Source: Tetragonia tetragonoides (taxonomy: Eukaryota > Streptophyta > Magnoliopsida > Caryophyllales > Aizoaceae). From it: DNA of 64,000 nt. This document shows, in pieces, positions 7,749 through 32,220 of the stretch. The notes under the pieces were generated by a model that had not been told where the DNA came from, ran no database searches, and saw nothing but the letters and a program-made list of their open reading frames with translations. The DNA lies in contig CM076144.1 in the NCBI GenBank assembly GCA_038025085.1, forward strand, positions 20,281,501 to 20,345,500. The letters run 5' to 3'. Within the stretch, counting starts at the first letter, position 1. The number at the start of each line of letters is the position of its first letter. Position numbers and translations under genes: made by a program.

Positions 7749-9097
7749 TTAATACTTCTTCCCTTTAGAAGGCTTTGTTGAAGAGTTTTTCTTTGAAGGA
7801 CCCTGGCTTGAGGACGACTTATGATCGATTCCTTGAGCTGGGGGCTTGCCTCTTTTCAGTACATGATAGCCTTCCTCACAAAGGCCATCCTTCGTTTTCT
7901 TGCTTCCTGTTCCTGAATCATACCTAGGTACTAGTTGGTTTCACTCCTTATGACGAAGGGCTCTCCTCACTTCTCCATCACTGCAAGAGAGTCAGTTTAA
8001 GTAGGTTTCATAAGCTTGAGTTGGGGCAATTACCCGGGGTACTGTCCAGCTAGCGATCCCTGCCACACCAGTATTTTCCCCAGTCCTTAGCAAATTCAGT
8101 TGTCAGAGCTAGTGTAAGTTGTCTTGTGGTCTCCTGACGAGGGATAGCCTGCTTCAAACCATACTGCCTCATGACCCTAGAGGGAAAGAAACAAGTACTT
8201 CTGTACAGACCCACTATCGTAGTATGAGGAACAAATTTGCAACAAGCAACCAAAGAGGTTAAACCCCACCAAGTTACATGCCAACGAACAACAGGTCTAG
8301 CATGGAAAAACGCATCCCATTCAGCAAGGGTCTTCTCCTCATATAGCCTTTTCCTAACTAAGAAGCTAGCAGTAGTATAAGTTTTCCTCTTCCAGGCTTG
8401 AGAGGCACGAGCTATCATCTTCTCTGGCGATTCTATCAGCCTTAGATGCTCGCATAACCAAATTTGAAGCAGCAGGGGGCTGCCACAAAAGTCTTCGTGA
8501 GGTGATTTTCAACCTGTCAAACCCTAAAATAGTTTCTCCTATAACCAGATGCGAAGGAGAATGCCCTTCAGCCATTTGATTCACCACTCGCAGCAAGGAG
8601 GCTCTACCCAGGTTGGAGGATTCTGCATTAACAAACAATAGGCGATTCAACAAGCAGAGTACAAAAGCCTGTCGGCGGCAACGCCTAAATATTGCATCAT
8701 GTTCAGAAGAAGGAGGAAACTTTTCCCATATTTGAGCTAAGTCCACATCGACACCGAGAATCATGTTTTTGGCTTCCGCAAATGACAAGCCTAGAGATTT
8801 CCTGTACTGATTACTAAAAGCATCCCTCAAATAAGGCACAGCTGGGGGAAGAACATCACACATATTAGAAACCGCAGCAAATTCTTCTACTAAAGGGCAT
8901 AATTCAAATTTACCAAAACGGAAAACGTGCAAGTGTAAGTCCCAATAGTTCAATGCAGATCGAAGAAGAGGCCACAAGATTTTGGTTGGTTTCAGAGCTA
9001 ATAAGGTTGAGATATGGTACGGAGCCTGTTCTAGTTTATTTTCCACGATCAGATTTTTGCACCAAGCATCGAACAAATTTTCGAAAGATTTCACCAT
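7749..9097 (-). pseudogene. aORF1 of TatA-1: PMD/DUF7745-like protein, antisense
   Basis: Antisense to the retrotransposon. ATG at 9097, start MVKSFENLFDAWCKN, then PLLRSALNYWDLHLHVFRFG and ELCPLVEEFAAVSN. These are the hallmark blocks of the plant domain I know as DUF7745, a relative of the plant mobile domain. The GETILGFDRLK block follows. A one-base shift near 8490 moves the frame to GSPLLLQIWLCEHLRLIESP, then ASFLVRKRLYEEKTLAEWD, PVVRWHVTWWGL and FFPSRVMRQYG. A probable intron (donor GGGTAATT near 8038, acceptor CTTGCAG near 7983) leads to a Lys/Ser-rich basic tail ending KGKKY, TAA at 7749. Unlike TatB-1, there is no intron between LLLQ and IWL (8464/8465). TATA is at 9171-9178. Molecular function is unknown; an hmmscan would settle the domain name. 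Confidence 0.7.
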
Positions 9098-9310
9098 GGT
9101 AGGAGCTTTGAGAAATTTGGGGAGCTAAAGGTCTGAAAAATAGATACAACATTGGACATCCCGTAAATTCTATTTATAGGCAAAGAGTCGGTTCAAAAGG
9201 AGTCAGAAATCCATGAAAAAAGCCCAAAGCCAGAGCCGCTAGCGGCCCACACCATTGGCCGAGCGCCGGTAGCGATCCAGCCCAGCGCCGCTAGCGCCCC
9301 TGACCTCGGC
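9098..9310 (-). promoter_or_regulatory. Promoter region of aORF1 in TatA-1
   Basis: On the minus strand TATAAATA (9178-9171) lies about 74 bp upstream of the ATG. Immediately further upstream, 9233-9305 is a GC-rich cluster of AGCGGC/GCCGCT and AGCGCC-type motifs in otherwise AT-rich DNA. The same arrangement precedes aORF1 in TatA-2 (TATA 34502-34509, cluster 34562-34625) and TatB-1 (TATA 21042-21049, cluster 20813-20990). Confidence 0.65.
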
Positions 9311-9684
9311 TCACTCAGTTTTTACACTTTTGCTCTCGTTCGCGCTTTTGGCCCGTTCGATGTAAGCCCGATTTTCCAATACGCAATGTGGTTACAAGGC
9401 CCAAGACTCTCTTAGTCTTATTTATTTTCTATTTTCTATTTTATTATTTTATTCTTTTTTTTAGGGGGTATAATATGTGTAATTTTTTCTTTTCCTTGAA
9501 ATTTTTACCCTTTTCTTTGTTTTATTCCCTAAATTGTCGCCTAATGTTTATAACATAACATATTGCATACTTGGAGATCAGACGGGCATAATCGAGTCAT
9601 AATAGCATACATATCAAATTAAATGCACAAAATTAGGAGTTCAAAGTTTTGAAGACCAAGGTTTACAAATCAAGCCCATACTGT
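9311..9684. other. Intergenic stretch between aORF2 end and aORF1 promoter
   Basis: AT-rich (T-rich on the + strand) sequence similar to 34700-35013 and 60620-60942. It probably holds the aORF2 3' untranslated region. No reading frame supported. Confidence 0.5.
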
Positions 9685-12465
9685 TCAGCTAGGGTCCTCA
9701 TCACCATTGCTATCGGCCTCATCCTTAATGGAAGGCCCCTGACCGTAGTTCCCGGCGGAGTAGTAGAAGGAGCCCTGAGTACTAAACGAGCTGTAAATCA
9801 GCCTGTTGTTGCTAGGCCTCATGTCCCGTCCATCGTGCACTGGCGCATGCATAGGGGTACCTACCGAAAACCCCGTCCTAAAGAAGCTCTCCGTGGCTTG
9901 TCCAGCAAAATCCATGACCACATTCTGATATGAAGGCCCAGCTTGGGGCACGTCCCACCCGGGAGCATTCGTCCAACCTCCAGCCATGGGAGTCACAACG
10001 GGCCTACTACTCAAAGAAGGCTGAAAACCCGCTGGAGAAAACATCTCAGGTACAGGAATGTACGGCCTAGAAGGTTCAGGCGCCTCATCAACAGGAGGCC
10101 TGGTCGCAGCCACAATAGGGGAACGAGCAACAGACGGTCTGCTCGCCGAAGAGACTTTTGCAGCTGATGAACGTCGGGTCCCACAGAAGACGAAGACTGC
10201 GACATCTGCAAACAATCAAGACCAAAATATTAGACTGAGCACTTCACTTAGCTAGACAACAAGGACAAAAGTACACCTACACTAGCGGTCCCAGATCAGG
10301 AGCTTTTCCCTCTACCCATCATCCGGCTATATCCTTTCTTCAGCAAATGGATGAGCTTGAAGACTTGAGAAGTCTGCTCCCGTTTCAGCTGCAAGAGAAA
10401 GACAAAAGATAGAGTCAGCATTCGAAAGCAACACAAGAAAACAAGAAGAGATAAAAACTTACCCCCACACAATCATCGAGCAAGGGTAAGCCCTCCACGG
10501 CCTCTCCATCAGCAATGTGTAAGGGAAGCTCCTCCACCACACGACCCCCACTCTCACCAACGTACCTCACCACATTGCTCGGTAAGGTCACACTTGGGGG
10601 CTGGCCACGAGGAACTCTAGAGTGGGACCTCCTGGGACCACGAGGAGCCAAACGATCCGCCTACAAGACACAAAATTTAGAACATTGCACATAAAGCTGA
10701 AAAGCACAAAAAAAAAGATTTTACCTCGGAGGTGAGGTCTGGCATCAGACAACCCAAGCAATAGGCCAGATACACAGCTGTATGGTCCAAACCAGCAACC
10801 TCCGGCTCAATAAACTGCATGGCCGCAGCTCCCCGGGACACGACCCTCATATCATCTATGCTCCGACTGCGCAGGTAGAACATGGTCATAGGGGGGTCCT
10901 CGGGAACCAAATTCCCCCCCCCCCAATGTAGGATGGACCAACTGAGTCAAGCGGTCTCCCAGATACCACTCAAAGCTGTATGGCCCTTCAAAAACCACCC
11001 GCAAGGTGGATACCCTGAAGGACTCGGTGGTAATATGGGCCAGAACCTCTGGAATACCGTCAAAAACGGTCCACGACACCTGCAGATTACAGGAGCAATG
11101 TTCATTCACGTCAAATGAACAAAAAATATATATATACTCAAGTCAGTCAAAGGCAATGTACCTCAGACGCAGCATGACTCTCGAAGGTAGTCCGAAAACC
11201 CTCCAAAGAGGCAAACGGATGGCTATCCCGGCCAACCTATCGTGAACCCAGTGGGAATATCCTCAAATCAGGACGGTGAGGATCAAAAGCTGGAAAATAC
11301 TCAAAGAACCACAACTGTCGTACAAGCAAAGACAATCAGATACGGCTCTATCGCAAAGGACGCATATGTAAAAAAAAAAATTGATATATGCCTACCTCCA
11401 GTATCCTCCATGGGCCACTGATACACGCTCTCCAACTCGTCATCTTTGGCCTACAAGCCTGACGACACCATCTCACCAAGGATGCGGAAGTAGGAGGACA
11501 AAAATTTTACTCATGTACCCAGGACAAGTCATCTAAACATGTCAGGAAGCCAACCTGACATACACTCTTCTTCTGGGCAAAGATGGTCGCCCCCAATAGA
11601 TAAGCCAAGAAAATGCGAGCCCGCTGCTCCTCAGTGAGCCCCTGCTCCGCTAAAGCTCCCCATAGCCTCGAAAAGGAAACTCGGTCCTTCCTAAAGTAGA
11701 CAGATACAGGCCAACACAACTCAAGCAACCTATTAGCCTGCTGGTGATAGCTCGCGTCCTACCGTCTAGGACACCCTCTAAAGGACAAGCCCGTTAGTAC
11801 AACAAACTGATAGGGGGTAGGAAACATCTCTCCCATAGGCGTATGGAAAGTGTTCGTGGTGTCCCAAAACCTCTCCAACAACCCACGGGAAACTATCCTA
11901 GTATCGCCAGAATGAAAAGCTAGGATAACCGATAGAAAGTACTCGAAGCCTGAACTATCTCCCTAGCCCCCTCAGTAAATGTGTCCAACAGTATGGCCCA
12001 GTGCGAAGTAGACCCATGAGCCTACAAACGAGTACCAACACCCTAGCCAACAAATATAAAAAAAATTCTAAACACCCCGTATACTACAAACACAGCCCAA
12101 ATAATTCCACACAAGTATTATATACAGCTGACCACCAATCCAGCATAATCCCAATTTGTTCGTGTGCAAGAGGACTAACAGTTCAAAATTTTCAGTAAAA
12201 AAAAAAAAACTGAACAAAACTAAAAAGGTCAGGAACGTACCAACCGCGGTTTAGACAGATGACTTTATCTGTCAAACAGTAGAACACTCCGGTCCCAAGC
12301 CTCCGTCGGGCGTCAGTCCATACGCATGAAAGAGTGCTGGTATAGATTAGCCCCATCCGCATGATGGGGAATAGGCATTCTAGATGATGAAAGCCCAGTA
12401 CGGAAGAGGTCACAGTTTTCCTGTTCTTCGCTCATGGGACGCTTCCCCTTGTTTTTTGGAGCCAT
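9685..12465 (-). pseudogene. aORF2 of TatA-1: multi-exon plant mobile domain protein, antisense
   Basis: A spliced gene on the strand opposite the element. Exon 1 (12465-12241) starts MAPKNKGKRPMSEEQ and ends before donor GTACG. Exon 2 (about 12010-11500) holds the PMD signature LLERFWDTTNTFHTPMGEM, then FVVLTGLSFRGCP and RIFLAYLLGATIF. Later exons encode VSWTVFDGIPEVLAHITTES, VVFEGPYSFEWYLGDRLTQL and DHTAVYLAYCLG (about 11080-10725), RVPRGQPPSVTLPSNVVRY (about 10660-10461, donor GTAAGT), and REQTSQVFKLIHLLKKGYSR (about 10390-10270). The last exon (about 10205-9685) is Pro/Tyr/Ser-rich and open to its stop. In-frame stops occur in exon 1 (after MRMD) and exon 2. The fold belongs with MAIN/MAIL-type PMD proteins (PF10536), known both as host genes and inside transposons; this copy is transposon-borne. 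Confidence 0.75.
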
Positions 12466-13515: not shown

Positions 13516-13614
13516 GTCAATGATCACTTGTGCGATTATACTGTCCTTTGTTTTTCATATGTTTTAGTCAATGATTGCTTAAACTGTTGCATTTAAACAG
13601 TTCATAAATTTTAA

Positions 13615-14158: not shown

Positions 14159-14170
14159 AGTGGGGGCTTC
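14159..14170 (+). other. Polypurine tract of TatA-1
   Basis: AGTGGGGGCTTC directly abuts the TGTAGACGCC start of the 3' LTR. The TatB-1 equivalent is AGTGGGGGCTTT (16506-16495, minus strand). Confidence 0.8.
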
Positions 14171-15368
14171 TGTAGACGCCAAAAAAGCGCCTTCAGATTT
14201 CTCCGCAAAAGCCCAATGATGAAAGGAGTAATTTATAAACTTGAATGTTATTTTTTCTTTAATAGGTAAAATAAGGTCTTAGGTTTTTCCTCGATCACTC
14301 CTTCATTCCGATCACATTCAAAAGCCCCGTTCAAGAGCTTTCGTGTCGTTTTCCGACTCCCGGTTGCCAAGTTGCTAACCGGGGATAAAATCGTCTTTTA
14401 CCGCACAAGGGTAAAACGGTATTTTCATATTTTTGGAATACTAAAATTTCTCCGGAAAATTAAAAATAGACTGGATGTCGTCATTATGACAACATCCAGC
14501 TGGCAAGCTGAGAGCCGCCAGCGGCGCTGGAATTTTAGTCAGCGCCGCTAGCGCCTGCGGCCAGCGCCCTCAGCGGCGCTCTCCAGCGCTGCCAGCGCCG
14601 CTCACTGGGTCTTTAGGCCCGTCTTTTTTTAAGCCCAAATTCCGAATTTCGGCCATCCCTTCAGCTGTCCAACCCTATTTCCTTCCCTATAAATAGGACC
14701 CTCGACCCTCAGTTCAAAACACACAGTCTACAGTTGACAACCTCAAATTAAATTAATTGCCTAATTTTTTATTTTCTAGTAGTCATAATGTAGATATCAT
14801 GCCAATAACGTCTTTATTGCTTACTAAATATTGTCTTTCAAAACATGTCTAGTCGTTGTAATGCTCAACTTGTCAATCGAATTGCATGTCTAAACAAGGG
14901 TCAATAATAAATGTTGTGATGCTTGTGATAAACCAATTAGTAGTCTATGTCTAGGTTATTAATCCGGTTTGTGTGGGAATCATGTCCTAAAATTATTAAG
15001 AAAACTTGAGTTAGAAGAGGCCGTCATAAAACGGGCGAGTTGGGTGCCTAACACCTTCCCACCTCGTACCTTCGCCCCCAAACCCTTTATTCTTGGGTAC
15101 TCATATGTTCTATATGAGCGGGAGTCTTTCTAAAAACATGACCAGTTCACTTATCGCGCTATTGGGTTCTCCCTTGGATAGTCCCTTCGGTTTGTCCCTT
15201 CGATAAAACGCCGATAGCATATTTGTGACCTCTTTCATGGTTTTTATTCAATTAAAGTCTTTACAAAAGCTTTTCTTACTTGATGGTCCCTTAAACTTAT
15301 CTAAACCCCCAACTTACAAATTTTCTATAAGGACAGACTCCGTGGCGTAGGAATCCACGGTCCTTACA
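14171..15368 (+). mobile_element. TatA-1 3' LTR
   Basis: Starts TGTAGACGCCAAAAAAGCG and ends CCTTACA, about 1.2 kb. It holds the GC-rich AGCGGC/GCCGCT cluster (about 14515-14605), TATAAATA (14688-14695) and the conserved GGGCGAGTTGGGTGCCTAAC block. About 140 bp present in the 5' LTR are missing at 14743, with CTC at both deletion edges. It is followed directly by TatB-1 LTR sequence; GTCAT (15369-15373) is the likely target duplication. Confidence 0.88.
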
Positions 15369-16494
15369 GTCATATGCGATTTTAATTCAATCGTGATGGG
15401 TAAAATAATTTGCAAGTAATGAATTCGCCACCAATTTTTAAGGAAACAATTGAAAACCATCAAAAATTTCACCCAATTCCTATTGGGAATTGACTCATAC
15501 CCAAAGGTGCTAAATATTGAGTTCGAAAGTGTAGGTACGAAATAAACAAAACGAATCTCATCTAAATCGCCCGAATTAACGGCCTCTACTAAGCATATCC
15601 ACGCCAAATATTTATATAAACTATATGGTTCCACATAAATCCGGTCGTCCAAGATCCTAAATTTATTACTACAGTTATCGCTTTGCACAATTTATATCCA
15701 ATTTACATGTATATTAATTATCAAGCACAAGCAAAAGATAAGAGCAATAATAAAACGCTCCAACCTACCACACTTTGCTAAACGCGCCAAGCATTGCATA
15801 TGCACATCAATAAATTTGTTAGTAACTTCAATGGAAGTTCAATGCAAAAAAATTAACTTTATGCTAAAATAAACCTAATGAGGTTGCTACATGCATGAAT
15901 AAATATAAAAAGATGTAAACTTGCATAAACTAACATGCATAATTATTTACAAGGATCAAACCATGCATAATTTATTCAACCATAATCAAAAGCTAAGTAA
16001 AACATGATTTTAAATAATGAAAGAAGAATTGAATAAAGAGTCTCTCAAACGAGGGTGAAAGGGAGTATTTATAGAGTTAGTTGACGAAATTAGGGGCCTA
16101 GAAACTCGGCCCAGCGGACACCGGGAAGGCAGCGGCTGGCCTAAGGGCCGTTAGCGTCAGCCGCTTGACCTCGAGGCGCGCGCGCGGCTAGAGAATTTTG
16201 GCTCTCTATGCTCAGTAAATTACGAAAATGCCCTTGGGCTGACCCAGGGGGTCGCGATCGAGCAATTTGACCCAAATCTTTAAGACGTGATATCTCTTGA
16301 TCCGGGAGCCTGATTGAGGCAAGGTCAAAGGCGTTGGAATCCTTATAACAAGGGTTATCCAAAGACTGAGGTTTCAAGAAATTTGGTCTAAATTTCCGAA
16401 CAGTGTCCTTCTCTACTTACGTCCATATTAATCCATTACCATCATCATCGGGCTTTGCGGTGCCAGGGGATGAAAACCGATTAGGGTGTCTACA
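15369..16494 (-). mobile_element. TatB-1 3' LTR, interrupted by TatA-1
   Basis: Matches the 5' LTR at 30706-32220. The first base on the minus strand is 16494 (TGTAGACACCC). The last 80 or so bases of the LTR are cut off by the TatA-1 insertion. Relative to the 5' LTR it lacks about 190 bp (near 16044) and about 100 bp in the GC-rich U3 cluster (about 16108-16190). TATAAATA is at 16074-16067. An ORF of 124 codons crossing 15314-15688 has counterparts in the two other LTRs of this family but no recognisable domain. Confidence 0.85.
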
Positions 16495-16635: not shown

Positions 16636-16838
16636 CCAACGTGACGCTAATTTTAATAGCCTCAACGTCAAAGAGCTTTGCGTAGCTCTCCTTTGCGGGT
16701 GCAAACTTGACGCTAATTTTAATGGCCTCAACGTCAAAGAGCGTTGCATAGCTCTGTTTTGCAGGTGCCAACGTGACACTAATTTTAATAGCTTGAATGT
16801 CAAATAGCGTTGCGTAGCTCTGCTTAAGTAATGCATGT
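16636..16838 (-). repeat. 66-bp tandem repeat in TatB-1 3' region
   Basis: Three copies with an exact 66-bp period, anchored at GTGACGCTAATTTTAAT (16641), TTGACGCTAATTTTAAT (16707) and GTGACACTAATTTTAAT (16773). Each ends with a TTGCGTAGCTCT-type block. A fourth degraded copy follows to about 16920. It occupies the same place as the TatA-1 minisatellite but is unrelated in sequence. The ORFs across it are repeat translations. Confidence 0.85.
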
Positions 16839-17634: not shown

Positions 17635-20351
17635 ATGGCTCCGAAATTGGGAAAGAAGAGGAGTAAAAGGGCCAAGGTGCGGGAAGAGGTCGAGGAAATC
17701 GACATCTTCACCAAGGCTTTTCCACCTCATGTGAAGCCTTCAAAGAGGAAGCCTAATGTGGCTTTTCCTCAAGATCGATACACCCGGTCAGATAGGATGC
17801 CCGACATTGTTTGGGATCGATCGGAGTTGATTTTCCAACCGGCGACTCATTTGATTTCTCGGGCTTCCAAGTTCGTGGTAAGTCCTCAAACTTTTGTATT
17901 CATAGTTTTATGTATTGAATTTGAGTTTATATGCGCTTGCCTTAGATAGAATTTGTATAGAAATTGTATGCAATTGTCTAGCTTGTAGCGCTTGTGATCT
18001 TGTGCGGCTTGAACGAACTTAGAAACATGCTTAGATTGAACATTTGATTGAAATGTGAACCTACTAAAGGTGAACTTGATCATAGGAACCCGATGGGAAT
18101 TTGAAGGCCTATAGAAACTATGGCTTTTCGTTTAAGCTTTTCAAAACCTTGCCCAAAGAGGTGCAAGATGCGGTGTTTAATGTGGGGTTTGGGCCCTTTT
18201 TGAGTGAGTAAAGCGATGTATTGTACGGTTTTCTTTGGAGCATTTTTGGGACACTACCAATACGTTCCACTTCCCTAATGGGGAAATGATGATTACTCCT
18301 TCGGAGTTTTCAATGTTGACCGGGGTACCTTGCGTGGGTAGGCCCATTGTTTATGACGTTTCTATTTGGAAACGTAAGACGGAGTTGGTGGAGCTCTTCG
18401 GTCCTTGGGGAAATACTTGGGGCCACCACTACCGTTCTAATAACGAGCTTTTTACGGCTTTGAAGGACTTGAGGTATAAGAGGAATACCTCGGTAGAGCA
18501 AAAGGCGAGGATGTTTATCGCCTACCTCCTTGCTACCACTATCTTAAGTGACAAGGGGGAGCGCATTCATGCCATCTACCTCCCAAGTCTGCTGGACTAG
18601 GATAGAGTGAGAGAGTACAACTGAGGGTTGCCGGCCTACGCCAACCTCTTGAGATGCATGCGGTACGCCTGCCGCGTGAACGCTGAGGGGTACAAGCAGG
18701 CAAACCTTCGTGCCGTGAGCTTGTGCGGCTTTTGGAAGGTTTTACAGGTTCATTTACATGCCTTGGTATTTGCTTTGCATGATTTAAGTGTACGGTGCTT
18801 TATCTCATGTTTGAATGTAGCCTTGGTTATTTGAGCATTTCCCATAGTTGGCGCCTACGGGCTTAGCCTTGGATTTCCCGGTTTGTAGAGCATGGTGTCA
18901 TAGGGGTCTAGCGCCTCTGCACACTCTCCAGTAGTTTAGAGAGGCTCTCCTGCGCATTAACTGGCACAAGGTAAAGATATTCGCTTTTGTTGTATGGGTT
19001 GCAATTCTTGGTGTGGAAATATCTTATGTTGCATGGTTGTGTATTTTGACTACTTCCCATGGGCGAAGTGTCATGGGTCGGCTCCGGATGCCATCCTTGC
19101 TTCTAGGACGGTGCACCGTTAGAGGATCCTGATTGCGGGTCCGTTCTCCTTTTTTGCCAGGTTTATCCTGATTCCGAGGGCCCTAGGATTCCTTTGGATC
19201 CTCCCTCATCCATGTTTCTGGTGAGGTGCTTCTCTCGCGAGCAGGTAGCGGAGGCCATGGTCGGTTCAGATGCTATACGGTATTTGAGGGAGCCTGCAGA
19301 GGACCTTACGGGGCATTATGAGCAGTTTCGCCGCGATCGCCTCATGCCCTCATTCGTGGGCTTGAAGGTAAGAATTGTACACTGGATATTCTATGCCTTT
19401 TGTCTTATTGGTACTAATTTACTTTGCTTTGTAGGAACCTCGGGTTGATGACATCTAGGTGGATGTCCGGAATATGCGGGTCCGAGGCCGGGGTTATGGC
19501 GAGAAGGAGTGCTGGGGGGAGATCCCTATGACGGAGTATCTTGATGAGGATTTCCAGGGTCTTACTCTTCACGTCGGTTGTCCAGGGGTAAATTCGTAAT
19601 TTACCAAAGTGTGAAATGCCTTGCTTCATTATATGCTTGTAGTAAGTTTTCCTTGTGTAGCCTGATCGTGAGCAGACCGGGAAGGTGTTCAAGATGATGC
19701 ATGCCATGGAGTCTTGGATATCCCGAGCCCTTTTGAAGGGTACTTGTTCAAGAGCTGATTTGGACAAGGTAAACTTCCATTTGAAATTTTCAAAGTTGCA
19801 TGCTTTGAGAAATGTGTCTTATAATTTTCTGTGGGATGCAGGTTGAGTACCGTCGACCTCTTGCTCGTAGGTCACGACAGGTGGTGCTGTCGGGTGACGA
19901 GGGTGTGAGCTCTATCAAGTATAGTCCTGCATGCGAGAGGAGCCCTCGGAGGGAGATTCTTGGGAGAGAGAGGGTGCATGTACATCGGTCGGACCGCCCT
20001 GGTGGGAATAGGATGACTCCGTATGTGGAGCTTGCTCCTATGCATATGCCGATGTATCCTCCTTATCCTGGGTATGCGGGATATCCTTCGTATGGCGGCC
20101 TTAATTATAAGCCCCTGGTTCCTGCTCCTATGGTGCCTACCATGCCTCCTCGTTCTTCGTGGGGGTATGACTCGAGCTATGCTCGGGAAGGGAGTTCAAA
20201 TCGGGAGCTTGCCCGACATTCCTCATTTGACCCTAGCCAGGTTGTGGCGTCGATTTTTGGTGATGAGGTGCGGAGGTCGGAGGACCGCTTTGAAGTGCCC
20301 CGTACGGATGATGATGCAGGTGATAGTTTTTATGATAATGTATATGTGTGA
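17635..20351 (+). pseudogene. aORF2 of TatB-1: multi-exon plant mobile domain protein, antisense
   Basis: The clearest copy of this gene. Exon 1 is 17635-17877 (81 codons, MAPKLGKKRSKRAKV to the Ser-Lys-Phe-Val before GTAAGT), basic at the start. Exon 2 begins 18086 after CATAG and carries the PMD core: EHFWDTTNTFHFPNGEM, EFSMLTGVPCVGRPIVYD, KARMFIAYLLATTIL. A one-base shift near 18200 and stops near 18598 and 18620 break it. Exon 3 (ending 18970) reads WLFEHFP...ALDFPVCRAW. Further exons end at 19367 (GTAAGA), then 19435 to about 19589, 19661-19768 and 19842-20351. The last exon is open and rich in Pro, Tyr and Met (MPMYPPYPGYAGYPSYGG), probably disordered. Related host proteins (MAIN, MAIL1) act in the nucleus in silencing and gene expression; the role inside a transposon is unknown. 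Confidence 0.78.
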
Positions 20352-21147
20352 AATACATTTTGAACATTTGTATTGAACAAACATTCGGACTTTGTGCTTG
20401 TAAAATATTGCTTGCTTATTTATCGGTCCCTGCACATAATTAGGCTAATGCAAATGCACACGTAGTCAAGCAAAAGCGCAAGTAATAGCCACTTAGCAAA
20501 AAATGGTACAACCAAAAAGTTAAAACAGGGGGTATCCTATCCCCCCTAAAAAAATGAAAAAAAGGAAAAGTGTGAAAAAATAAAATGAAAATAATAAATA
20601 AAAGGAGATTGATAAAAGGATGATAAAAGAAAAAAGACGATAATCAGAAAAAAGAAATAAGGAAATTGTGGAGTTTCCGTTAATTTTAAGGAAATAATAC
20701 AAAGTGGAAATAATAGAAGAAATAGGAAAAAAGAACCATTTTGAGTCCAAAACGGTTAAGGAAAGTGTCCAAAATCGGAGAAAAGGGACTTGTCTCGAGA
20801 AAAGCGTCCGACGGCCAGCGGGAGCAGTCCAGCAGCACACGCGGAGCAGCGGGGCGAAAAGGGGTGCCGCCAGGCGCCAGCGGCTGACCGCCGGGGCTCA
20901 ACGGCATGCCGCTGGAGCTCAACGGTGTGTCGCTAGGCCTATGCTACACTATCGAGCACCGCTGTCAGCGGTTGTCCCAGAGGCCGCTGGAGCCCCTTTT
21001 TGACGGGTTGCCTTATTTTTTCGTCTTTTCTGTGCGAGCCCTATATAAGGCTTGGGTTAGTCCGATTTGGGACATCACCTTCATAATTTGCATCAATAGA
21101 GAGCTTCTTAGAGAGAGAAACCCTTTAATTATTCTTAGATTTCAGCA
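20352..21147 (+). promoter_or_regulatory. aORF2 3' flank and aORF1 promoter in TatB-1
   Basis: The first 450 bp are AT-rich, including an A-rich run (20540-20720), and probably contain the aORF2 terminator. At 20813-20990 there is a dense GC-rich cluster of CAGCGG, GCCGCTGG and GCGCCAGCGGC motifs. TATATAAG follows at 21042-21049, then a leader of about 100 bp to the aORF1 ATG at 21148. The ORFs that run through the cluster are not conserved in the other copies. Confidence 0.65.
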
Positions 21148-22702
21148 ATGACAAGCTTTGATGTGAAATTTGACAAGTGGTTATAATCCATGAGCCCCAA
21201 AGAGAGGATGAGACTTGTGCCTTTTCACTTGAATGCCCTCTTCCACCTTAAGCAAGTTCAAATAGTATGGAATCTCCTTGAGTCGGCAATTGAATTCTGG
21301 GATGACAATCTGCTTGTCTTCCGCTTTGGGTATAACGAATTATGTCCTCTTCCCGAAGAGTTTGCCGCTATCCTTGGATTTCCCCATGATCGATCAAGCT
21401 CCCGCCACTCCATGGCTTGGAGCAAACCTTGAAGGCTACTACAAAAGGTACCTTAGCCTATCACCAACACAAGCTTCCTCCGTTGCTAGGAGTGATGAAC
21501 TAGACCTCAATGGTGTGATTGACATCTTCTTCCCCAAGGTAAGGGATGATCATGACGTGATGAGTGAGACCTACTATAAACGACTTTAGTACTCTTGCAT
21601 AGGTACCTCTTTGTTGGCGGAGGTAATAAGGGTAGAACTAATATGCTTAGAATTGTTGAACAAATTCAAAACAATTTTACCCCTATGTCTCTTGTCCTTG
21701 GTGAAACTATAATTTGCTTGGATCTCAAGAAACAAGAGCCATCGCTTGGTGAATGGACGGAAAGCCCTCTTCTTCTCCAAGTAAGTGCTTGGATTTGTGC
21801 TTGAATTATTTGTTTTTTAATAAAGCTTGAATCTTTGATGGATTTTTAACTTTATGTATTTCTTGCTTTTGTAGATATGGCTTCTTGAGCATATGTGTTT
21901 TATTGACAGACCCGCTAATGTGCTCAAGTATCAACCAAAGCAATTTCCGGCATGCCGGAGGTTGTATTATGAATCTACCATTGATGAGTGGCGTGGGTAC
22001 CTTAAAGCATGTCCCTTGTTACGGTGGACCGTCAAGTGGTGGGGGCTTAAAATCCGCAATCGGATGCAACAAGATTCGGTATATTATCAAATCCTCGATC
22101 TTCTTAACTCAATTTATATGTTTCCTTGTCGTATTATGCGACAATAAGGGAAACGCCAAATTATTCCACCAAAAGATAGTGTTCCTCCTACCGCGCGAAC
22201 ATTGACAATTAGTATGGTAAGATCTTGGGAGTGTGCATGGGACCGTTGCCCTAAGTAGACTATTCCTCATATTAAGGCGCCCACAACCATATCTTCGGCT
22301 TATGAGGCTTGGATGGATTGCAAGACCACAAAGGGTCGTCGTGCATGTAGGAAATCCGAACAAGGCGATTTCAAGGCCCAATCGGTCAAAGCTAGCCTAA
22401 GACTCTCAAACCCTAATTACCCAAAGGGAAAATTTAAGAAAAAGGGAGTTAAGCATGTGAAAGGCATCCTTAATCCGAAGGCCAAGAAAGCTTTGGAAAA
22501 GATCACTACTAAACCGCAGGAGGAAGCCCCAATTCGGGCCAATGATGATCATGAGGCGTCTTCAAGCACACCTCTAATGGTGATTGAAGAAGATGAGCCT
22601 ACGATCCGAGAGAGATGGGCTCCCAAGGAGCGGGATGCGGAGGGCCCAAAAGGGGGTCAGTCCATGGAAGACGCGGGCCCTACTACCGAAGTTACGGAGT
22701 AG
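21148..22702 (+). pseudogene. aORF1 of TatB-1: PMD/DUF7745-like protein with an intron, antisense
   Basis: ATG at 21148 opens MTSFDVKFDKWL, followed by an in-frame TAA (21184), so as it stands the frame restarts at Met 21190. Hallmark blocks are NLLESAIEFWDDNLLVFRFG and ELCPLPEEFAAILGFP, collinear with TatA-1 aORF1. Frameshifts near 21385 and 21590 follow. Then come GGGNKGRTNMLRIVEQIQ and LVLGETIICLDLKK. A 94-bp intron (21781 GTAAGT to 21874 TTTTGTAG) splits LLLQ from IWLLEH. After it: STIDEWRGYLKACPLLRW, TVKWWGLK and FPCRIMRQ. The basic C-terminal part (KKKGVKHVKGILNPKAKK) and an acidic tail end at TAG 22702. The basic tail could bind nucleic acid, which is inference. Confidence 0.72.
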
Positions 22703-25534: not shown

Positions 25535-26338
25535 CTAGGATCGATCAATCTCGATCCCTCTGGTGCTTATGACAAATCTCAAAAGCTTGTCGGATGTGAT
25601 TCCGAATGCGCAGTGTTTGGGATTAAGTCTCATGTTGTACTTCCTAAGCCTATCGAAAAACTTTTGAAGTGAGGGTACATGCCCTTCTCTTTCCTTAGAC
25701 TTTATGATCATGTCGTCCACGTATACTTCTGCCTCTTTGTGCATCATATCGTGGAGAAGGGTGGTCGTGATTCTTTGATACGTAGCCCCTGCATTCTTAA
25801 GCCCGAATGGCATTACGATGTAGCAATAAGTGCCCCACTGTGTGATGAAAGTGGTTTTCTCCTCATCCTCTTTGGCCATTAGAACTTGGTTATAGCCTGC
25901 GTACCCGTCCATGAATGATAGGAGGGCGTGTCCGGTTGTATTATCTACTAAAACATCTATGTGGGGTAGTGGAAAGTCATCTTTGGGGCTTGCTTTGTTT
26001 AAGTCCCTGAAATCCATGCACATTCGTACTCGTCCATCCTTTTTTGGGACTAGAACGATGTTGGCTACCAAATCGGGGTAATTGGCGACTCTTATGAATC
26101 CTGCATCAAGTTGTTTCTGGACCTCTTCTTTGATCTTAAGAGCCCATTCCGGTTTCATTCTTCTTAGCTTTTGCTTGACTGGTTTGCAGTCGGGGTTTAG
26201 TGGGATGGTATGTTGGGCAGTGTTGCGGTCTATACCGGGCATGTCCTTGTACGACCAGGCAAAAACATCCGTATAATTCTTTAGGAGTGTTACGAATAGT
26301 TCACGTTCATTAGAAGTTAAAGACAAGCTAATTTGCAC
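25535..26338 (-). pseudogene. TatB-1 reverse transcriptase
   Basis: 267 codons open from Met 26338. It begins in the pre-RT region (YTDVFAWSYKDMPGIDRN) and runs through the core: NIVLVPKKDGRVRMCMDFRD, LSFMDGYAGYNQVLM, MPFGLKNAGATYQR, and the active-site motif VYVDDMIIKS. The metal-binding YVDD aspartates are intact. The substitutions MDGYAGY (usually DGFSGY) and FRDLNKASPKDDFPLP fit the Tat/Athila side of the tree. The frame stops at TAG just after the RT thumb (RGIEIDRS), before RNase H. Confidence 0.92.
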
Positions 26339-27264
26339 ATGGCGTGGCTCATCATTAGTTGCAATATTTCTTGTCTCTGTTTCTTCGATTATTGAAGTCT
26401 TTTGTTCACTTCGATTAGTGCTTTAATGACTTCTTTTGGCAACTCTGTTATGTATTCTGAATTATTAGCAACAAGACAATCCGGGTAAGCGAAATAAGCA
26501 CTCGTAACATTAATAGAAGCAGACAAAACATAAATGAGGTCATCACTAACGACCTTAGTAGCTATAGAAATAGACTGGGGTGGACTACCCGACACTTCTA
26601 GGATAACAGACTCAGAATTAGACTCGGACTCAGAATCAGAATTGGGGCCTTCTGAAGGACCATTGCGGATCGTGAACTTGTACTTGACTCCCTCGACTGG
26701 AGCCCACTTAGTCTCGTGCTACCAGGTGGCGCGGTCGGGCCCGATTAGGGCAATCATCTTGGACGGGTCAAAACCTTTGTTGAAAAGCACAGTAAGAGGA
26801 AGTTTACCCAATGCTTCATTATATTGGCGACGTTCTTCACCAAATAGTAGCCCAAAGTCGTTGGGTGCCATGTTATTAGCCCAATCTTTAGTGGATTGGT
26901 CCTCCTTGAGAGGTGATGGTGCCTCTTCACTCATGGTGAAACAGTCTTGGAATGCCTCGAAGCCTGGAACTAAAATTCCATTGATCGCATAAGGTTCAGG
27001 GAATCCATAGTAGGGATATGGATCGCCTTCTTAAAGAAATTGCCCATTGAGAGTTAGAGGATAAGGATCCATGTTATGTGGGAAGGGCTTGTTGGCCGCG
27101 CGAGCTTTCTTTCTAGCCACTTCCTTAGATATGTAGGCTCGAAGCTCTTGCTTGGTGGGTTTGTAGCCTAACCCGAATAGATCATTTTTTATCTTAGAAT
27201 TCCAGCAAGATTGGGTTACCTTGGGGTGAGGGCCCAAAGTGATGCCTGAAAAGTAACCTTACTT
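26339..27264 (-). pseudogene. TatB-1 protease-RT linker
   Basis: Coding but broken linker. Pieces include LFGLGYKPTKQELRAYISKE, PYPLTLNGQFL, a GFPEPYAINGILVPGFEAF segment, FGLLFGEERRQYNEALGKLP, and an acidic run (SDSESESNSES). These match the long spacer known between protease and RT in Tat-lineage polyproteins. Stops interrupt it near 27031, 26719 and 26389. No separate enzyme domain is recognisable, and no intron is needed to explain it. Confidence 0.65.
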
Positions 27265-28644
27265 TCAGAGTAGGGTGTTCACATCGAGCGTGGGCTCTAT
27301 TGTTTCTATGAATGCTACCTTCTCAAAGCCCCATAATTCTTCATCTTGCTCATTATGCTCTATCTTTAAGGCTGGAGCTTTTTCTATCTGGGCCACCATG
27401 GTATCGGTGCAGACTTCCAGAGTGGATCCTGCCAGAGATAGCTTTACCTTTTGGTAAAGGGTTGAGGCTACAGCATTAAGCCCATGCAACCATAGCCTTC
27501 CTAAAAGTATATTAAAGGTGGCCGGAATATCTATAACGTGAAATTGGACCATTTTCTCGATGGGCCCAATGTTAATGTTCATGGAGAACGTGCCTATGAC
27601 GTTTCTTTTGGAATTGTCGTAAGCTCTTAGCCCTTGTGCAGAATGCGCAAGGTTGTTGCAGTCTATTTTGAGGTCTTCAGCAGTCCTCAAGGGGCACAAG
27701 TTTACAGCAGAGCCATTCTCAACTAAAGTCATGGGGACTTGTCTTTGTTGACAAATTACAGCCAGATAGAGAGCTTTGTTGTGATGAATACCTTCGGGTG
27801 GAAGATCCTTGTCAGAAAAGGTGACGGGTGTGGATGACTTTCCTTGGAACAGGAGGTTAACCACGTCTTCAGGAGTAGCATTTGGAGAGATGGTGGTTGC
27901 ATTCAAGGCTTCTAACACGGCCCTTCTATGAGTGATAGAAGTGGTCAATAATTGCCAAATGGATATGTCAGCTTTTGTCCTTTGCAACTTAGTTCCATCA
28001 TCTTCCTTAGTTGCCTCCCTTTGGGTTGGATCCCTATTGAGGATTGACACCAGCTCTACAGGTTGGATTTGATATGGATCCATGTAGATATTCTTGGGCA
28101 TGAACTGGTGACCTGACCTTGGGAGGTAGTTCAAAGCCTTGTCATCTTCATCTTTCTCGTCATCAGAGATGTCATACCATACTTTGCCATTGGCTTTGTC
28201 ATGGACTTGAGGAGTTAGCACATCTTCAGGGTCAGTATAATGTCCATTATCCTCTTCATCACTATCCCAAAGGCCACAAATATCTGGCGTGGGCCTTGAG
28301 CTTGGGTAAGGTGGTATTGCTTGCCCAATAGGAGTGATTAAGTAGGATGGATCAAATCCTTCCTTTATGTCAATAGCGAAATAGTTTCCAAGGGGATTAT
28401 TATTGTTGCTAGGCGGTGGTGTGTCCTTTGGCAATGGTATGGTGCCATTGTCGAACAGATCATGAATTTTCTCTTTAAGAGTGTAGCATTTCTCGGTGGC
28501 ATGCCCACGATCTCTGTGGTATTTGTAGAATACGGACTCACTCCAATACGACGATCTTTTCTCTATGGGAGGATCAGGAGTAGGCCCAATAGGGTGTAAG
28601 TAGTCTTCTTTGACTAACTTGTCTAGAGCTTTGACATAAGGCAT
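27265..28644 (-). pseudogene. TatB-1 gag C-terminus and aspartic protease
   Basis: 459 codons open, in a different frame from the upstream gag. The start region (KALDKLVKEDYLHPIGPTP) corresponds to REFAPL...LQPIG in TatA. The zinc knuckle reads YKYHRDRGHATEKC, with the first Cys changed to Tyr. An acidic middle is followed by the conserved KADISIWQLL...VLEAL block. The protease follows at roughly residues 300-390: VPMTLVENGSAVNLCPL carries Glu in place of the catalytic Asp (TatA-3 has VDNGS), then FNILLGRLWLHGLNAVASTL. The Asp-to-Glu change would be expected to abolish or strongly reduce cleavage. Confidence 0.85.
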
Positions 28645-29606
28645 CCCAAGGGGAGTAATCTTCTCGAGCGCCTATCAGTAATGGCATTCACCTCATTTCC
28701 TCTACTTGTGGAGGCATGATTGGTGTTGGTGTATTTCTTATCCTTGTAGCCACTTATGTTGTTGTTGTAAGTGACCTTGTTCTTCGCTCTTTGGAGTTGG
28801 TCATCCTCAATGGCCATGCCTACTTCTGTTAGTTGGAAATAAGTGGTTATTGGCTGAAACTTCATGTGTTCACGATATTCAGACGCTAAGATTTGGACTA
28901 ACATCTTAATTTGATCCCTTTCAAATGGGCGATCAATCATTTCAGCAACCTTGGTCCTCCATCTTCTCACGAAGTTGGTGAAGCCTTCCTTATCACCTTG
29001 CTTGGTGATGTTCAATTCTCTCAATGTCATGGGAGGCAAGACATTGTCAGCATATCTCTCTAAGAAAAGAGTAGACAAATCCTCCCACTTTTGTTGCTTT
29101 TGAGTGGGTAGCTTGAAGAACCAGGCCCTAACAGCAGGGTCTAAGGTTTGGGGAAAGAGGTGAACATACAACTCTTGTTCAATGCCTCTAAGGCCCAATG
29201 CAGTGGTAAAAGCTCTAATGTGATCTTGTGGATCATCGGTTCCTTTGAATGTGGGAACTTCAGGCATGGAAGACATAGCGGGCAATTTTCCCTTAATGTG
29301 GGGAGCATAGCCTTCGGAATTGATGATCATGTCATTAAAGACACGACTCTTGCCTAGAACGGACTCAAGCCTATTCAACTTAGCTTGGAGTTCTTGGACC
29401 TCTTTAGTTGAGGGCTCAGTCTTATCTTCATTTGGTTTGGGTTCATCTCTATCCCTAGTGGGTGGATCCAACTTAGCGACACGGGCTTCCATATTAGTGA
29501 ATCTAGCATTCATGACGACCAATTGGGACAAAAGGTCGTCCATCTTTTGGTTTGCGGTTCTTTCAGCTTGCGGGTCAATCTCTTGTTGGACTCGTCCCTC
29601 TTCCAC
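28623..29606 (-). pseudogene. TatB-1 gag N-terminus and core
   Basis: 327 codons. The N-terminal heptad pattern (MDDLLSQLVVMNARFTNMEA and a second run around residues 70-85) suggests a coiled coil. The retrotransposon gag core follows: SMPEVPTFKGTDDPQDHIRA, HLFPQTLDPAVRAWFFKLP, WEDLSTLFLERYADN, TLRELNITKQGDKEGFTNFV. It forms the particle shell in the family. The reading frame shifts by one base near 28640 relative to the knuckle/protease part. The shift breaks conserved text (DRRSRR then PLGM), so it looks like damage rather than programmed frameshifting. Confidence 0.88.
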
Positions 29607-30686
29607 ATTGTAGGACCGTAATCTTTATTCCTACCAATTCTGGAGATAAAAAGGCCTGTTTAAGAAAATAAGAAATAAATGAAAAACTCCACGAAAAGAA
29701 AGATTTTGTTTTTTTTTTAAAAAACAAATATGATAAAAGAATCTAGCACTAATCCTCATTATGGCGATTTTTAGATGAGACGCGATTTTATGTAAATAGT
29801 ATACTTCAGTCAATGATCTTTCGACTCTATTAAATTAGACATTATACTCTTGATTTGCTTTATGGAAATGAATGAGGACTCTACCCTTGACTTAGATATG
29901 GAATAGAATTTCCGAACTCAAGAAAAGGAAAATATACGGTTGACTTGCTTTAAGGAAATAAATAAGACTCTTTTCATTTTGTTAAAGATCATTACCGGAA
30001 ATATATTATTTGCACGCAATCTAATTCGTATGGAAAAGAACGTCTTCCTAAAATGGTCACTAGCATCGTCGGAATCATATATGGATTCTATTTCCTAAAA
30101 AGAAAAGATCCTAAACTCTATTTGTAAACCTGACAAAACGCACAAGCACACAAAAGGGAATCCTTCCCAAAGTTGGACTCAAGAAAATCCTAAGGGGGGA
30201 TCTAGTCCTAGTATTCTATGGAAACTGATCACATAGCAAGGAAGCAATCAATCACAATATGGCAAGTAAATCAATTAGCACCTTGATATGGACTATGGGA
30301 CTAAATGCAATAGCTTGACACAATCTATGGTTGGATAAGGTAACCCACGATCGGATGCGTTTCGTCATCTATGGGATGCATGGTAAAACTAAATGTACCG
30401 TTTTACATATCTCGAATGGAAACATGTAAATGCCATGGGGTGAAACACGACTATGTGCAAGGCAATTCGGACCTAGTGGGTCACTAACCAAGTCATAGAC
30501 AATGCTCCAAAAGGTAGATCCTATTAAGGTGAGGTGATGTCTTTCGACATCTTGCGATGATAACGCATGCAAGTGAATGATATGGATGCAAAGCAATGAA
30601 TGTAAACACATACGATAATTGAACCAAATAGCAAAAAATAAATTATTGACATGGATAAGTTTTTGAATTACACCCTCTTACAAATG
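29607..30686 (-). other. TatB-1 leader
   Basis: About 1.1 kb between PBS and gag, AT-rich, without a supported reading frame. The ORF 30369-30611 has no counterpart elsewhere in the window. Confidence 0.55.
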
Positions 30687-30705: not shown

Positions 30706-32220
30706 TGTAAGAACCCTCGCCTTTCCGGCGCTTTTAACGTCGATTGAAATGTTTGAGATTGGAATTAATAGTTCTTAAATAATACGTCATATGCGATTTT
30801 ACTTGAATTGTGATGAGGAAAATAATTCGCAAGCAATGAAGTCGCCACCAATTTTTAAGAAAACAATTGGAAATCATAAAAAAAGGCACACAATTCCTAT
30901 TGGGAATTGACTCATACCCAAAAGGGCTAAATATTGAGTTCGGGGGTGTAGGTACGAAATAAACAAAACGAATCTCATCTAAATCGCCCGAATTAACGGC
31001 CTCTAATAAGCATACCCATGTCAAATATTTATTTAAACTATATGGTTCCACATAAATCGAGTTGTCCAAGATCCTAAATTTAACTAGGCGGGTTAAAGAC
31101 AACCCAATTATCTACCGTTATCGCTTTGCACAAATTATATCAAATTTACATGCTTTTAATTTATCAAGCACAAGCAAAAGATAAGATCAATAATAAAACA
31201 CTCCAACCTACCACACTTTGCTAAACGCGCCAAGCATTGCATATGCACATCAATAAATTTGTTAGTAACTTCAATGGAAGTTTAATGCAAAAAAATTAAC
31301 TTTATGCTAAAATAAACCTAATGAGATTGCTACATGCATGAATAAACATAAAAACTTGTAAACTTGCATAAAGTAACATGCATAATTATTTACAAGGATC
31401 AAAACATGCATAATTTATTCAACCATAATCAAAAGCTAAGTAAAATAAGATTATAAATAATGAAAGAAGAATTTAATAAAGAGATTTAGGCCCTCAGGAT
31501 GGTTAACCTGGACGTTCTATTCGAACGGGACTAGTAGAATTGCAATTTTTCTTCAATCTTGGGTGCTAGGTTGGGTGCAATGACTTGCTTGAATCTTCAA
31601 ATTCTGAATTCTCTATGATTTAAGGTTTTTGTGCTCTCAAATTGCTCTCAAAGTTATGAACTGACCAACCTCTCTCTAAAGAGGGTGAAAGGGAGTATTT
31701 ATAGAGTTAGGGGACGAAATTAGGGGCCTAGGGCTGCAGCCCCGACGCCAAACTCGGACCAGCTAGAAAATCAGGCCCAGCGGCCAACCGGAAGGCAGCT
31801 GGGGGCCAGCGGCTGCCGCTGGGCCCGCGGCTGGCCAAAGGGCCCCCACTGCCACGCGTGTTCCGCTGGGTCGTTAGCGTCAGCCGCTTGACCCGGAGGC
31901 GCGCGCGCGACTAGGGGTTTTTGACTTTTTATGCTTAGTAAATTACGAAAATGCCCTTCGGCTGACCCAGGGGGTCGGGATCGAGCGGTTTTGACACAAA
32001 TCTTTAAGATGCGATATCTCTTGATCCAGGAGCTTGATTGAGGCAATAAGGTCAAAGGTGTTGGAATCCTTATAGCAAGGGCTATCCAAAGATTGAGGTT
32101 TCAAGGAATTTGGTCTATATATTCGAGTAATGTCCTTTTCTACTTACGTCCATATTAATCCATTACCATCATCATCGGGCTTTGCGGTGCCAGGGATGAG
32201 AACCGATTAGGGTGTCTACA
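30706..32220 (-). mobile_element. TatB-1 5' LTR
   Basis: 1515 bp, minus-strand TGTAGACACCC...TTCTTACA. U3 carries the GC-rich AGCGGC/GCCGCTGGG cluster (about 31770-31905) and TATAAATA (31703-31696). Further in is a block related to the TatA LTR (AGGCCGTTAATTCGGGCGA, CCCCCGAACTCA). At 30847-30837 the LTR contains TGGCGACTTCA, the start of its own PBS. A 122-codon sense ORF (31102-30734) has counterparts in two other LTRs of this family. The base after the LTR begins TACAC (32221), a possible target duplication whose partner is not visible. Confidence 0.9.

What the first reader, a model, noticed from the sequence alone, without database searches (positions are those of the whole stretch)
17635..22702. 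Two-gene antisense module (PMD gene plus a DUF7745-like gene) carried by a Tat retrotransposon
Between integrase and the 3' LTR of TatB-1 lie two spliced genes on the strand opposite gag-pol. Each has its own upstream region, and both carry related plant-mobile-type domains. Seen directly: order, orientation, splice-site-like junctions and domain motifs. Known: Tat-lineage elements can carry extra antisense ORFs, and PMD proteins such as MAIN and MAIL1 act in silencing and gene expression in plants. Inferred: the pair may encode factors that counter or exploit host silencing, expressed independently of the LTR. I cannot tell whether this exact pair has been described.
Basis: partly seen in the sequence, partly recalled or inferred. 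Interest (0 to 1): 0.78.

Follow-up and report, generated by a model that had tools for sequence, protein, structure and literature searches.

The report
Two antisense genes in a retrotransposon
A plant jumping element carries, on its opposite strand, two extra protein genes that evolution kept working for as long as the element was moving, and short repeated DNA signals near them and in the element's own control region suggest the proteins may regulate the element itself.

Summary
Element B (5'LTR 30706-32220, 3'LTR 15369-16494, gag-pol on -) carries two + strand genes between integrase and 3'LTR. Gene 1 (17635-20351, seven predicted exons) encodes a Plant Mobile Domain (PMD). Gene 2 (21148-22702, two exons) lies between PMD and DUF7745. 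Both are broken here.

Both are real genes. In 14 genomic copies, variants shared by three or more copies crowd into third codon positions (gene 1 76/690 against 46/1380; gene 2 70/465 against 32/932), as in integrase; private variants are nearly flat. A diverged second family (element A; L040-L042) has the same pair in the same order, with dN/dS 0.13-0.20.

PMD ORFs in Ogre/Tat elements and antisense ORFs after pol are both known; I found no description of this two-gene module in the held papers. New leads: (1) a TATA box before gene 2; (2) an AGCGGC/CAGCGG motif clustered in the LTR and upstream of the antisense genes, rare elsewhere; (3) gene 1 resembles, below cut-off, DUF1985, a domain of the VANC anti-silencing proteins. 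Best reading: a self-regulatory, possibly anti-silencing, accessory module. Function untested.

The parts
30706..32220 (-). 5' LTR of element B (carries AGCGGC/CAGCGG motifs near 31778-31883)
   Evidence: LTR alignment and termini TGTAGAC...CTTACA on -; motif counts
15369..16494 (-). 3' LTR of element B; its far 80 bp are missing exactly where element A's LTR ends; about 89% identical to the 5' LTR
28623..29624 (-). gag region
   Evidence: Retrotrans_gag 22 bits, just below cut-off 24.1
25535..26422 (-). reverse transcriptase
   Evidence: RVT_1 88.8 bits
24918..25328 (-). RNase H following RT
   Evidence: RT_RNaseH 50.7 bits
24452..25021 (-). additional RNase H between RT/RH and integrase (Tat, Ogre/Retand position)
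   Evidence: RVT_3 71.9 bits, RNase_H 27.1 bits
23391..24314 (-). integrase
   Evidence: rve 45.6 bits, H2C2 30.6 bits
16495..17634 (+). gene 1 upstream region: tandem repeat of 66 nt (16638-16825) and a few CAGCGG/AGCGGC motifs
17635..20351 (+). gene 1 (antisense to gag-pol): predicted exons 17635-17877, 18086-18747, 18821-18970, 19107-19367, 19435-19587, 19661-19768, 19842-20351; Plant Mobile Domain; broken in this copy
   Evidence: GT-AG junctions, PMD 71 bits, codon-position test on 14 copies
20352..21147 (+). gene 2 promoter region: motif cluster 20814-20983 partly as ~21-nt tandem units, TATA box at 21042
21148..22702 (+). gene 2 (antisense to gag-pol): exons 21148-21780 and 21875-22702; PMD/DUF7745-like; broken in this copy
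9688..12465 (-). element A, gene 1 homologue (antisense to A's gag-pol), decayed
   Evidence: tblastn matches of 36-41% identity to B gene 1 exon pieces; ATG position
8053..9097 (-). element A, gene 2 homologue; no intron at the B intron site; broken
   Evidence: PMD 38.1 bits when scanned with X at its break; 34-50% identity to B gene 2 pieces
9098..9687 (-). element A, gene 2 promoter: AGCGGC cluster 9235-9287 and TATA box about 80 nt before the ATG
14171..15369 (+). element A, 3' LTR with AGCGGC cluster 14514-14603

Best explanation
This is an accessory two-gene module of an Ogre-like Tat retrotransposon. Shown: both antisense genes are protein-coding and were kept by purifying selection while the elements transposed; the pair is conserved, in order and orientation, in two diverged families of this genome; gene 2 has a TATA promoter; one short GC-rich motif is concentrated in the LTR (the gag-pol promoter) and upstream of gene 2 and, more weakly in some copies, of gene 1. 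Inferred: the two PMD-family proteins enter the nucleus (gene 1's start and gene 2's end are rich in lysine and arginine, read by eye) and act in trans on the element's own promoters, directly or with a host partner, at the shared motif, to keep LTR and antisense promoters transcribable, either by opposing chromatin silencing as VANC proteins do for VANDAL elements or as transcription regulators. Transcription from their own promoters would let them act before or apart from gag-pol RNA.
For: Coding and selection: shared variants at codon positions 1,2,3 = 23,23,76 of 690 each (gene 1) and 17,15,70 of 466,466,465 (gene 2), Fisher p 1.4e-11 and 3.5e-14; singletons 229,202,239 and 147,131,161; noncoding shared-variant rates 6-11%. 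Integrase control 10,3,45 of 264,263,263. dN/dS gene 2 0.18, 0.19, 0.20, gene 1 exon pieces 0.13-0.16. Pair in element A and in 3 of 3 A-family loci. TATA box before gene 2 in A, B, D, L040, L041, L042 and in 13 of 14 B-family copies, B included. Motif: CAGCGG ranks 1 of 250 hexamers in B (14 in 5' LTR and upstream regions, 0 in the rest), AGCGGC 4 of 238 in A (8 against 0) and 1 of 95 in L041 (12 against 0); in 13 further B copies both hexamers together number 129 in 19.5 kb left of gene 1 and 144 in 10.3 kb between the genes, against 9 in 35.3 kb of gene 1, 8 in 20.4 kb of gene 2 and 4 in 19.5 kb on the integrase side. Gene 1 exon 2 of five B-family copies (B itself and four others, all that were scanned) matches DUF1985 over 76-82% of its length, E 5.8e-6 to 0.0018; VANC proteins contain DUF1985, and their target motifs often form tandem repeats in noncoding parts of their element (PMC5735166, passages).
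Against: No expression, localisation, binding or methylation data were available. The DUF1985 matches are all below the curated cut-off (18.7-26.8 bits against 35.1), come from one family of copies (one independent observation), and are not significant in A-family gene 1 (L040 and L041 none, L042 E 0.19), nor found in 7 other PMD genes of this genome or the MULE PMD. The motif was first noticed in gene 2 promoters of A, B and D, so only the LTR, gene 1 upstream and L040-L042 counts are fresh tests, and L040-L042 are relatives of A. AGCGGC ranks only 21 of 77 in L040; against shuffles it is unremarkable in the gene 1 upstream regions of B and A (56 and 77 of 300) and modest in B's 3' LTR (16 of 300). 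CAGCGG is mainly a B-family form: it is absent from the gene 2 promoters of A and L040. A's top two hexamers are AT-rich words, so hexamer ranking also picks up composition. A host factor could bind the motif. Gene 1 of B lacks a visible TATA box. PMD biochemistry is unknown, and host PMD proteins MAIN and MAIL1 promote silencing rather than oppose it (PMC5418596).
Confidence: 0.5

Rival explanations
1. The proteins serve the replication cycle itself, for example nuclear import of the pre-integration complex, target choice or RNA handling, and not transcription. Their antisense placement only separates their timing from gag-pol.
For: Purifying selection of the same kind as on integrase. Vicient and Casacuberta discuss such roles for antisense additional ORFs (PMC7264820, passages). 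Basic ends compatible with nuclear proteins are visible in the translations.
Against: Does not explain why one motif marks the LTR and the antisense upstream regions.
Confidence: 0.25
2. The antisense transcription or its RNA is what matters (dsRNA, transcriptional interference); the open frames are incidental.
For: Antisense RNAs of retrotransposons may regulate by dsRNA (PMC7264820, passages).
Against: Codon-position bias of shared variants and dN/dS 0.13-0.20 require selection on the proteins.
Confidence: 0.04
3. The shared GC-rich motif is an ordinary host transcription-factor site (for example of the GCC-box/ERF type, recalled) or a compositional by-product of short tandem repeats, unrelated to the two proteins. 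(Compatible with either of the two main functions.)
For: Motif clusters partly lie in 21-22 nt tandem repeats, and its core resembles a plant GCC box (recalled).
Against: It recurs in separate regulatory regions of two families whose DNA there gave no BLASTN match to each other; dinucleotide shuffles of the same stretches reach the AGCGGC count in at most 4 of 300 for 9 of 12 regions.
Confidence: 0.4
4. The antisense genes are passively carried host PMD genes (transduction) or decayed open frames without function.
For: All 14 B-family copies have stops or frame changes in at least one gene.
Against: Both genes lie in two families whose integrases are only 62% identical and show selection; 12 of the 150 gene 2 matches scored have open frames of 400 aa or more and no internal stop. 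Gene 1 and gene 2 are only remotely similar to the PMD gene clusters of this genome.
Confidence: 0.02

Closest known systems
Plant mobile domain eORFs of Ogre/Tat elements (PMD found in 57% of Ogre elements, PMC6317226 section 13; PMD-A1/A2 clades encoded only by Gypsy elements, PMC5418596 passages)
   Same: PMD protein in a Tat element with the additional RNase H between RT/RH and integrase; antisense additional ORFs downstream of pol are a known arrangement (PMC7264820). That the published Ogre PMD ORFs are antisense is my recall, not seen in the passages.
   Different: Here there are two separate, distantly related PMD-type genes in tandem, one with seven predicted exons and one with its own TATA box, sharing an upstream motif with the LTR. 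Whether the pair corresponds to PMD-A1 plus PMD-A2 could not be tested (supplements not available).
Retand antisense ORFs with Transposase_28 (PMC11963269, parts 1-3 of 5 read)
   Same: Antisense ORFs between pol and 3' LTR, tandem repeats in that region, proposed regulatory role.
   Different: No PF04195 match in any protein scanned here; PMD-type domains instead.
VANC anti-silencing proteins of VANDAL elements (PMC5735166, passages)
   Same: Element-encoded accessory protein; DUF1985 similarity of gene 1 (below cut-off); short motif clustered in the element's noncoding regions, partly in tandem repeats.
   Different: LTR retrotransposon, not a VANDAL DNA transposon; PMD is the significant domain; motif differs; binding and demethylation not tested.
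Host MAIN/MAIL1 PMD proteins (PMC7156037 search listing, PMC5418596 passages)
   Same: PMD family.
   Different: Host silencing factors; gene 1 and gene 2 are only remotely similar to the PMD gene clusters of this genome.

Membership tests
Tat lineage, Ogre/Retand type | Additional RNase H between RH and integrase (PMC6317226 section 13) | tested here: met
   Order RT 25535-26422, RT_RNaseH 24918-25328, RVT_3/RNase_H 24452-25021, integrase 23391-24314
Tat lineage, Ogre/Retand type | Primer site matching tRNA-Arg, as described for Ogre (PMC9289625 passages) | tested here: inconclusive
   Same TGGCGACTTCACTGGGGA next to the 5' LTR in A and B; assignment to tRNA-Arg is recalled
Retand with Transposase_28 | Antisense ORF with PF04195 | tested here: not met
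   No PF04195 in any scanned gene 1 or gene 2 piece
Plant mobile domain PF10536 | Score above the curated cut-off of 34.9 bits | tested here: met
   Gene 1: 71.4 bits, piece 45.8; the L042 piece only 25.7. Gene 2: 38.1-44.7 in element A, L040, L042; B's own broken gene 2: no PMD match
DUF7745 PF24924 | Score above the curated cut-off of 26 bits | tested here: not met
   14.4-23.9 bits in window and genome copies; relative P0002 reaches 44.2
DUF1985 PF09331 | Score above the curated cut-off of 35.1 bits | tested here: not met
   18.7-26.8 bits in five B-family gene 1 copies; 12.1 bits in L042, none in L040 and L041
VANC anti-silencing proteins | Sequence-specific binding to motif clusters in its own element and loss of methylation there | not testable with these tools
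   Motif clusters found; binding and methylation need experiments
Functional protein-coding gene | dN/dS well below 1 or third-position excess | tested here: met

The most novel reading that the evidence does not exclude
The pair is a two-protein, VANC-like, sequence-specific anti-silencing system of an LTR retrotransposon: PMD proteins 1 and 2 recognise AGCGGC/CAGCGG (palindrome-like CCGCTAGCGG) clusters in the LTR and in their own promoters and keep them unsilenced, and PMD and DUF1985 are one ancient superfamily of element-encoded chromatin regulators from which the host silencing factors MAIN/MAIL1 also come.
Probability: 0.2. Interest if true: 0.88.

Novelty: new variant of a known kind. 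Interest (0 to 1): 0.62.

Why it matters
Many plant LTR retrotransposons carry extra antisense genes whose purpose is still open (PMC7264820, PMC11963269). This window and its genome give what is needed to test it: two genes rather than one, codon statistics showing that both proteins were needed while the elements moved, a TATA promoter, and a candidate DNA target shared by the LTR and the antisense promoters. If the proteins act on that motif, it would link retrotransposon PMD proteins, the VANC anti-silencing proteins and the host silencing factors MAIN/MAIL1 in one evolutionary story.

Tried and rejected
Structure: AlphaFold of P0002 with a 7-row alignment gave mean pLDDT 37 and was discarded; no fold search was run. 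No PDB relative was found for the one PMD protein tried, the MULE PMD of L039 (0 matches at E up to 1). Viral contigs: 2 pattern matches, no relative of element A's gene 2. Protein database: 1 and 3 relatives only, so spread over other plants could not be measured. Recent tandem duplication of gene 1 into gene 2 was rejected: profile comparison gives probability 13.5% for gene 1 against gene 2, and 51% and 53% for each against the PMD gene clusters of this genome. Conservation of GT and AG across copies (11-14 of 14) was not used as evidence, since neutral identity predicts about the same. The high-scoring PMD matches of the genome turned out to be PMD gene clusters on C9 and C15 and, in the one of many similar matches that was opened, a MULE transposon, not relatives of this module. 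A comparison with true DUF1985 and DUF7745 members of the same genome was planned but the tool did not complete (DUF7745; DUF1985).

Literature: library searches. None of the listings named a two-gene PMD module, and no paper of the library holds DUF7745 or PF24924. The key survey (Steinbauerova and others 2011) is not held and is known to me only from citations and recall, so prior description of such a pair cannot be excluded.
Full report
WHAT IS THERE. The window is from a genome of 752.8 Mb (G000; window at C6:20281501-20345500), by its elements a flowering plant. Element B runs on the minus strand between a 5' LTR at 30706-32220 and a 3' LTR at 15369-16494; the LTR alignment has about 89% identity and shows the termini, and the 3' LTR lacks its far 80 bp exactly where element A's LTR ends. 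Pfam finds RT at 25535-26422, RNase H at 24918-25328, an additional RNase H at 24452-25021, integrase at 23391-24314 and a gag match just below cut-off. The additional RNase H between RH and integrase is the position of the Ogre and Retand clades of Tat (PMC6317226, section 13). No Transposase_28, the Retand mark, was met in the proteins scanned; PMD was, which fits the Ogre side.

THE TWO GENES. Gene 1 (17635-20351, +) reads as seven exons with GT-AG introns; joined for a scan it gives PMD at 71 bits, and its exon 2 piece alone 45.8 bits. Gene 2 (21148-22702, +) has one intron; element A and P0001, a protein of another source, read through the same junction without an intron, which supports the splice site. 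Gene 2 of better-kept relatives matches PMD at 40-45 bits and DUF7745 below cut-off; P0002 (42% identical to L040's gene 2 over 86% of it) passes both cut-offs. In this copy both genes are broken: 5 and 3 in-frame stops plus frame breaks.

MORE THAN CHANCE. A DNA search of the own genome with 17635-22702 gave 41 matches, 32 of 1,458 candidates being scored; the first 14 (B included) cover the module from base 1-3 to 5065-5068 of 5,068. They are 87-92% identical to one another. Variants shared by at least three copies arose mostly before or between transpositions; private ones mostly after insertion. Shared variants fall at codon positions 1,2,3 as 23,23,76 of 690 each in gene 1 and 17,15,70 of 466,466,465 in gene 2 (Fisher 1.4e-11, 3.5e-14). 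Private variants are nearly flat (229,202,239; 147,131,161; p 0.066 and 0.040). Introns, intergenic and promoter columns have 6-11% shared variants (columns with fewer than 10 copies were skipped, and 14 columns of gene 1 and 57 of gene 2 next to B's frame breaks were left out of the frame count). The integrase of 14 copies (not all the same ones), read in its own frame, behaves the same: 10,3,45 of 264,263,263. So the antisense proteins were under purifying selection of the kind seen on a core enzyme. All 14 copies are broken in at least one gene.

A SECOND FAMILY. Element A of the window (gag-pol on +, about 2455-15369) has both genes on its antisense strand in the same order, 34-50% identical in the matched pieces; the integrases of A and B are 62% identical. 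A search with A's gene 2 scored 150 of 6,971 candidates, 12 of them with an open frame of 400 aa or more and no stop inside. I fetched three with long frames (L040, L041, L042; the row of L041 carries one TGA); all three have gene 1 exons upstream of gene 2. Their gene 1 is not shown to be whole: L040 has two in-frame stops in predicted exons and the L042 piece starts out of frame. dN/dS is 0.18-0.20 for gene 2 (436-457 codons of the stop-to-stop frames, dS 0.41-0.65) and 0.13-0.16 for two gene 1 exon pieces (139 codons in three pairs, 116 in one pair, dS 0.67-1.26). Within the window, A against D also shows third-position excess (38,29,60 in the last exon of gene 1; 34,20,55 in the gene 2 N-part; the gene 2 C-part gave 49,51,54, probably because the frames fall out of step); A against C (13,24,33) and D against C (36,30,49) in gene 1 are weaker, p 0.007 and 0.012.

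PROMOTERS AND A SHARED MOTIF. A TATA box precedes the gene 2 ATG by about 80 nt in A, D, L040, L041 and L042 and by 106 nt in B; TATATAAG is present there in 13 of 14 B-family copies. None was found for gene 1 of B in about 1,140 nt. Upstream of the gene 2 TATA box lies a GC-rich motif, AGCGGC or CAGCGG, in A-family copies often as the palindrome CCGCTAGCGG. I noticed it in gene 2 promoters of the window, then tested elsewhere. Ranking the hexamers that occur at least four times in LTR plus upstream regions against the rest of each stretch: CAGCGG is 1 of 250 in B (14 against 0; 5' LTR 4, gene 1 upstream 3, gene 2 upstream 7), AGCGGC 4 of 238 in A (8 against 0; two AT-rich words and AGCGCC rank higher), 1 of 95 in L041 (12 against 0), but only 21 of 77 in L040 (7 against 1). 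Shuffles that keep dinucleotides reach the AGCGGC count in at most 4 of 300 for 9 of 12 LTR and upstream regions, in 16 of 300 for B's 3' LTR, and in 56 and 77 of 300 for the gene 1 upstream regions of B and A; CAGCGG is mainly a B form and is absent from the gene 2 promoters of A and L040. In 13 further B copies the two hexamers, overlapping ones counted apart and regions cut at fixed offsets, number 129 in 19.5 kb left of gene 1 (LTR end included), 144 in 10.3 kb between the genes, 9 in 35.3 kb of gene 1, 8 in 20.4 kb of gene 2 and 4 in 19.5 kb on the integrase side. Part of the clusters are 21-22 nt tandem units.

A LEAD TO ANTI-SILENCING. Exon 2 of gene 1 in the four further B-family copies scanned, and B itself, matches DUF1985 in register with PMD, E 5.8e-6 to 0.0018, 18.7-26.8 bits, all below the cut-off of 35.1. 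In A-family gene 1 it is absent (L040, L041) or E 0.19 (L042); seven other PMD genes and a MULE PMD do not show it. VANC proteins, which remove methylation from VANDAL elements by binding short motifs that often form tandem repeats in the element's noncoding parts, contain DUF1985 (PMC5735166, passages). This makes a VANC-like role worth testing; it does not show it.

MECHANISM AND RIVALS. I favour a nuclear, promoter-directed accessory role (0.5), with a replication-cycle cofactor as main rival (0.25); the reading that a host factor alone binds the motif is compatible with either. A purely RNA-level or passive explanation is excluded as the whole story by the codon evidence.

WHAT IS KNOWN. 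Antisense additional ORFs between pol and 3' LTR, PMD in 57% of Ogre elements, Gypsy-only PMD-A1/A2 clades, and TRP28 in Retand are published (PMC7264820 passages; PMC6317226 section 13; PMC5418596 passages; PMC11963269 parts 1-3). In the passages seen I found no two-gene PMD module, no selection test separating shared from private variants of such ORFs, and no motif shared by LTR and antisense promoters; searches are listed under Tried and rejected. I rate it a new variant of a known kind.

Noticed in passing
L039 (G000:C4:12785000-12792999): A MULE transposon (MULE transposase domain 91.6 bits on -) with a convergent PMD gene (157 bits); dozens of similar PMD matches in the genome list share a single in-frame TAG, perhaps an intron or a fixed stop.
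   Followed up: partly
L001-L008 (G000 C9 42.07-42.32 Mb and C15 4.41-4.61 Mb): Two clusters with 24 PMD matches, 19 of them over nearly the whole profile and mostly uninterrupted (351-365 bits in the seven scanned): an apparently large expansion of PMD genes, presumably host genes; transposon context not checked.
   Followed up: partly
21781-21874 in B; same junction in A at about 8463, and in P0001: An intron of gene 2 is present in family B and absent in family A and in P0001: intron loss or gain inside a retrotransposon's antisense gene, which the sense RNA cannot splice out.
   Followed up: partly
15369: Element B's 3' LTR is cut exactly where element A's LTR ends, suggesting that A inserted into, or recombined with, B's LTR.
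   Followed up: no
16638-16825 and 13054-13477; L040 about 6282-6813: In the three elements looked at, tandem repeats of different sequence (66 nt; 54/181 nt; one seen only in translation) lie between the 3' LTR side and gene 1.
   Followed up: partly
1-484 and 52604-53087, 1162-2397 and 48510-49778: Inverted 86-91% similar pieces of another LTR element (integrase C-terminal SH3_Tf2-1 domain) lie about 50 kb apart around the nested Tat elements.
   Followed up: no
L040 about 4270-4440: A long (TA)n/(TG)n run sits inside a predicted intron of gene 1 (seen).
   Followed up: no
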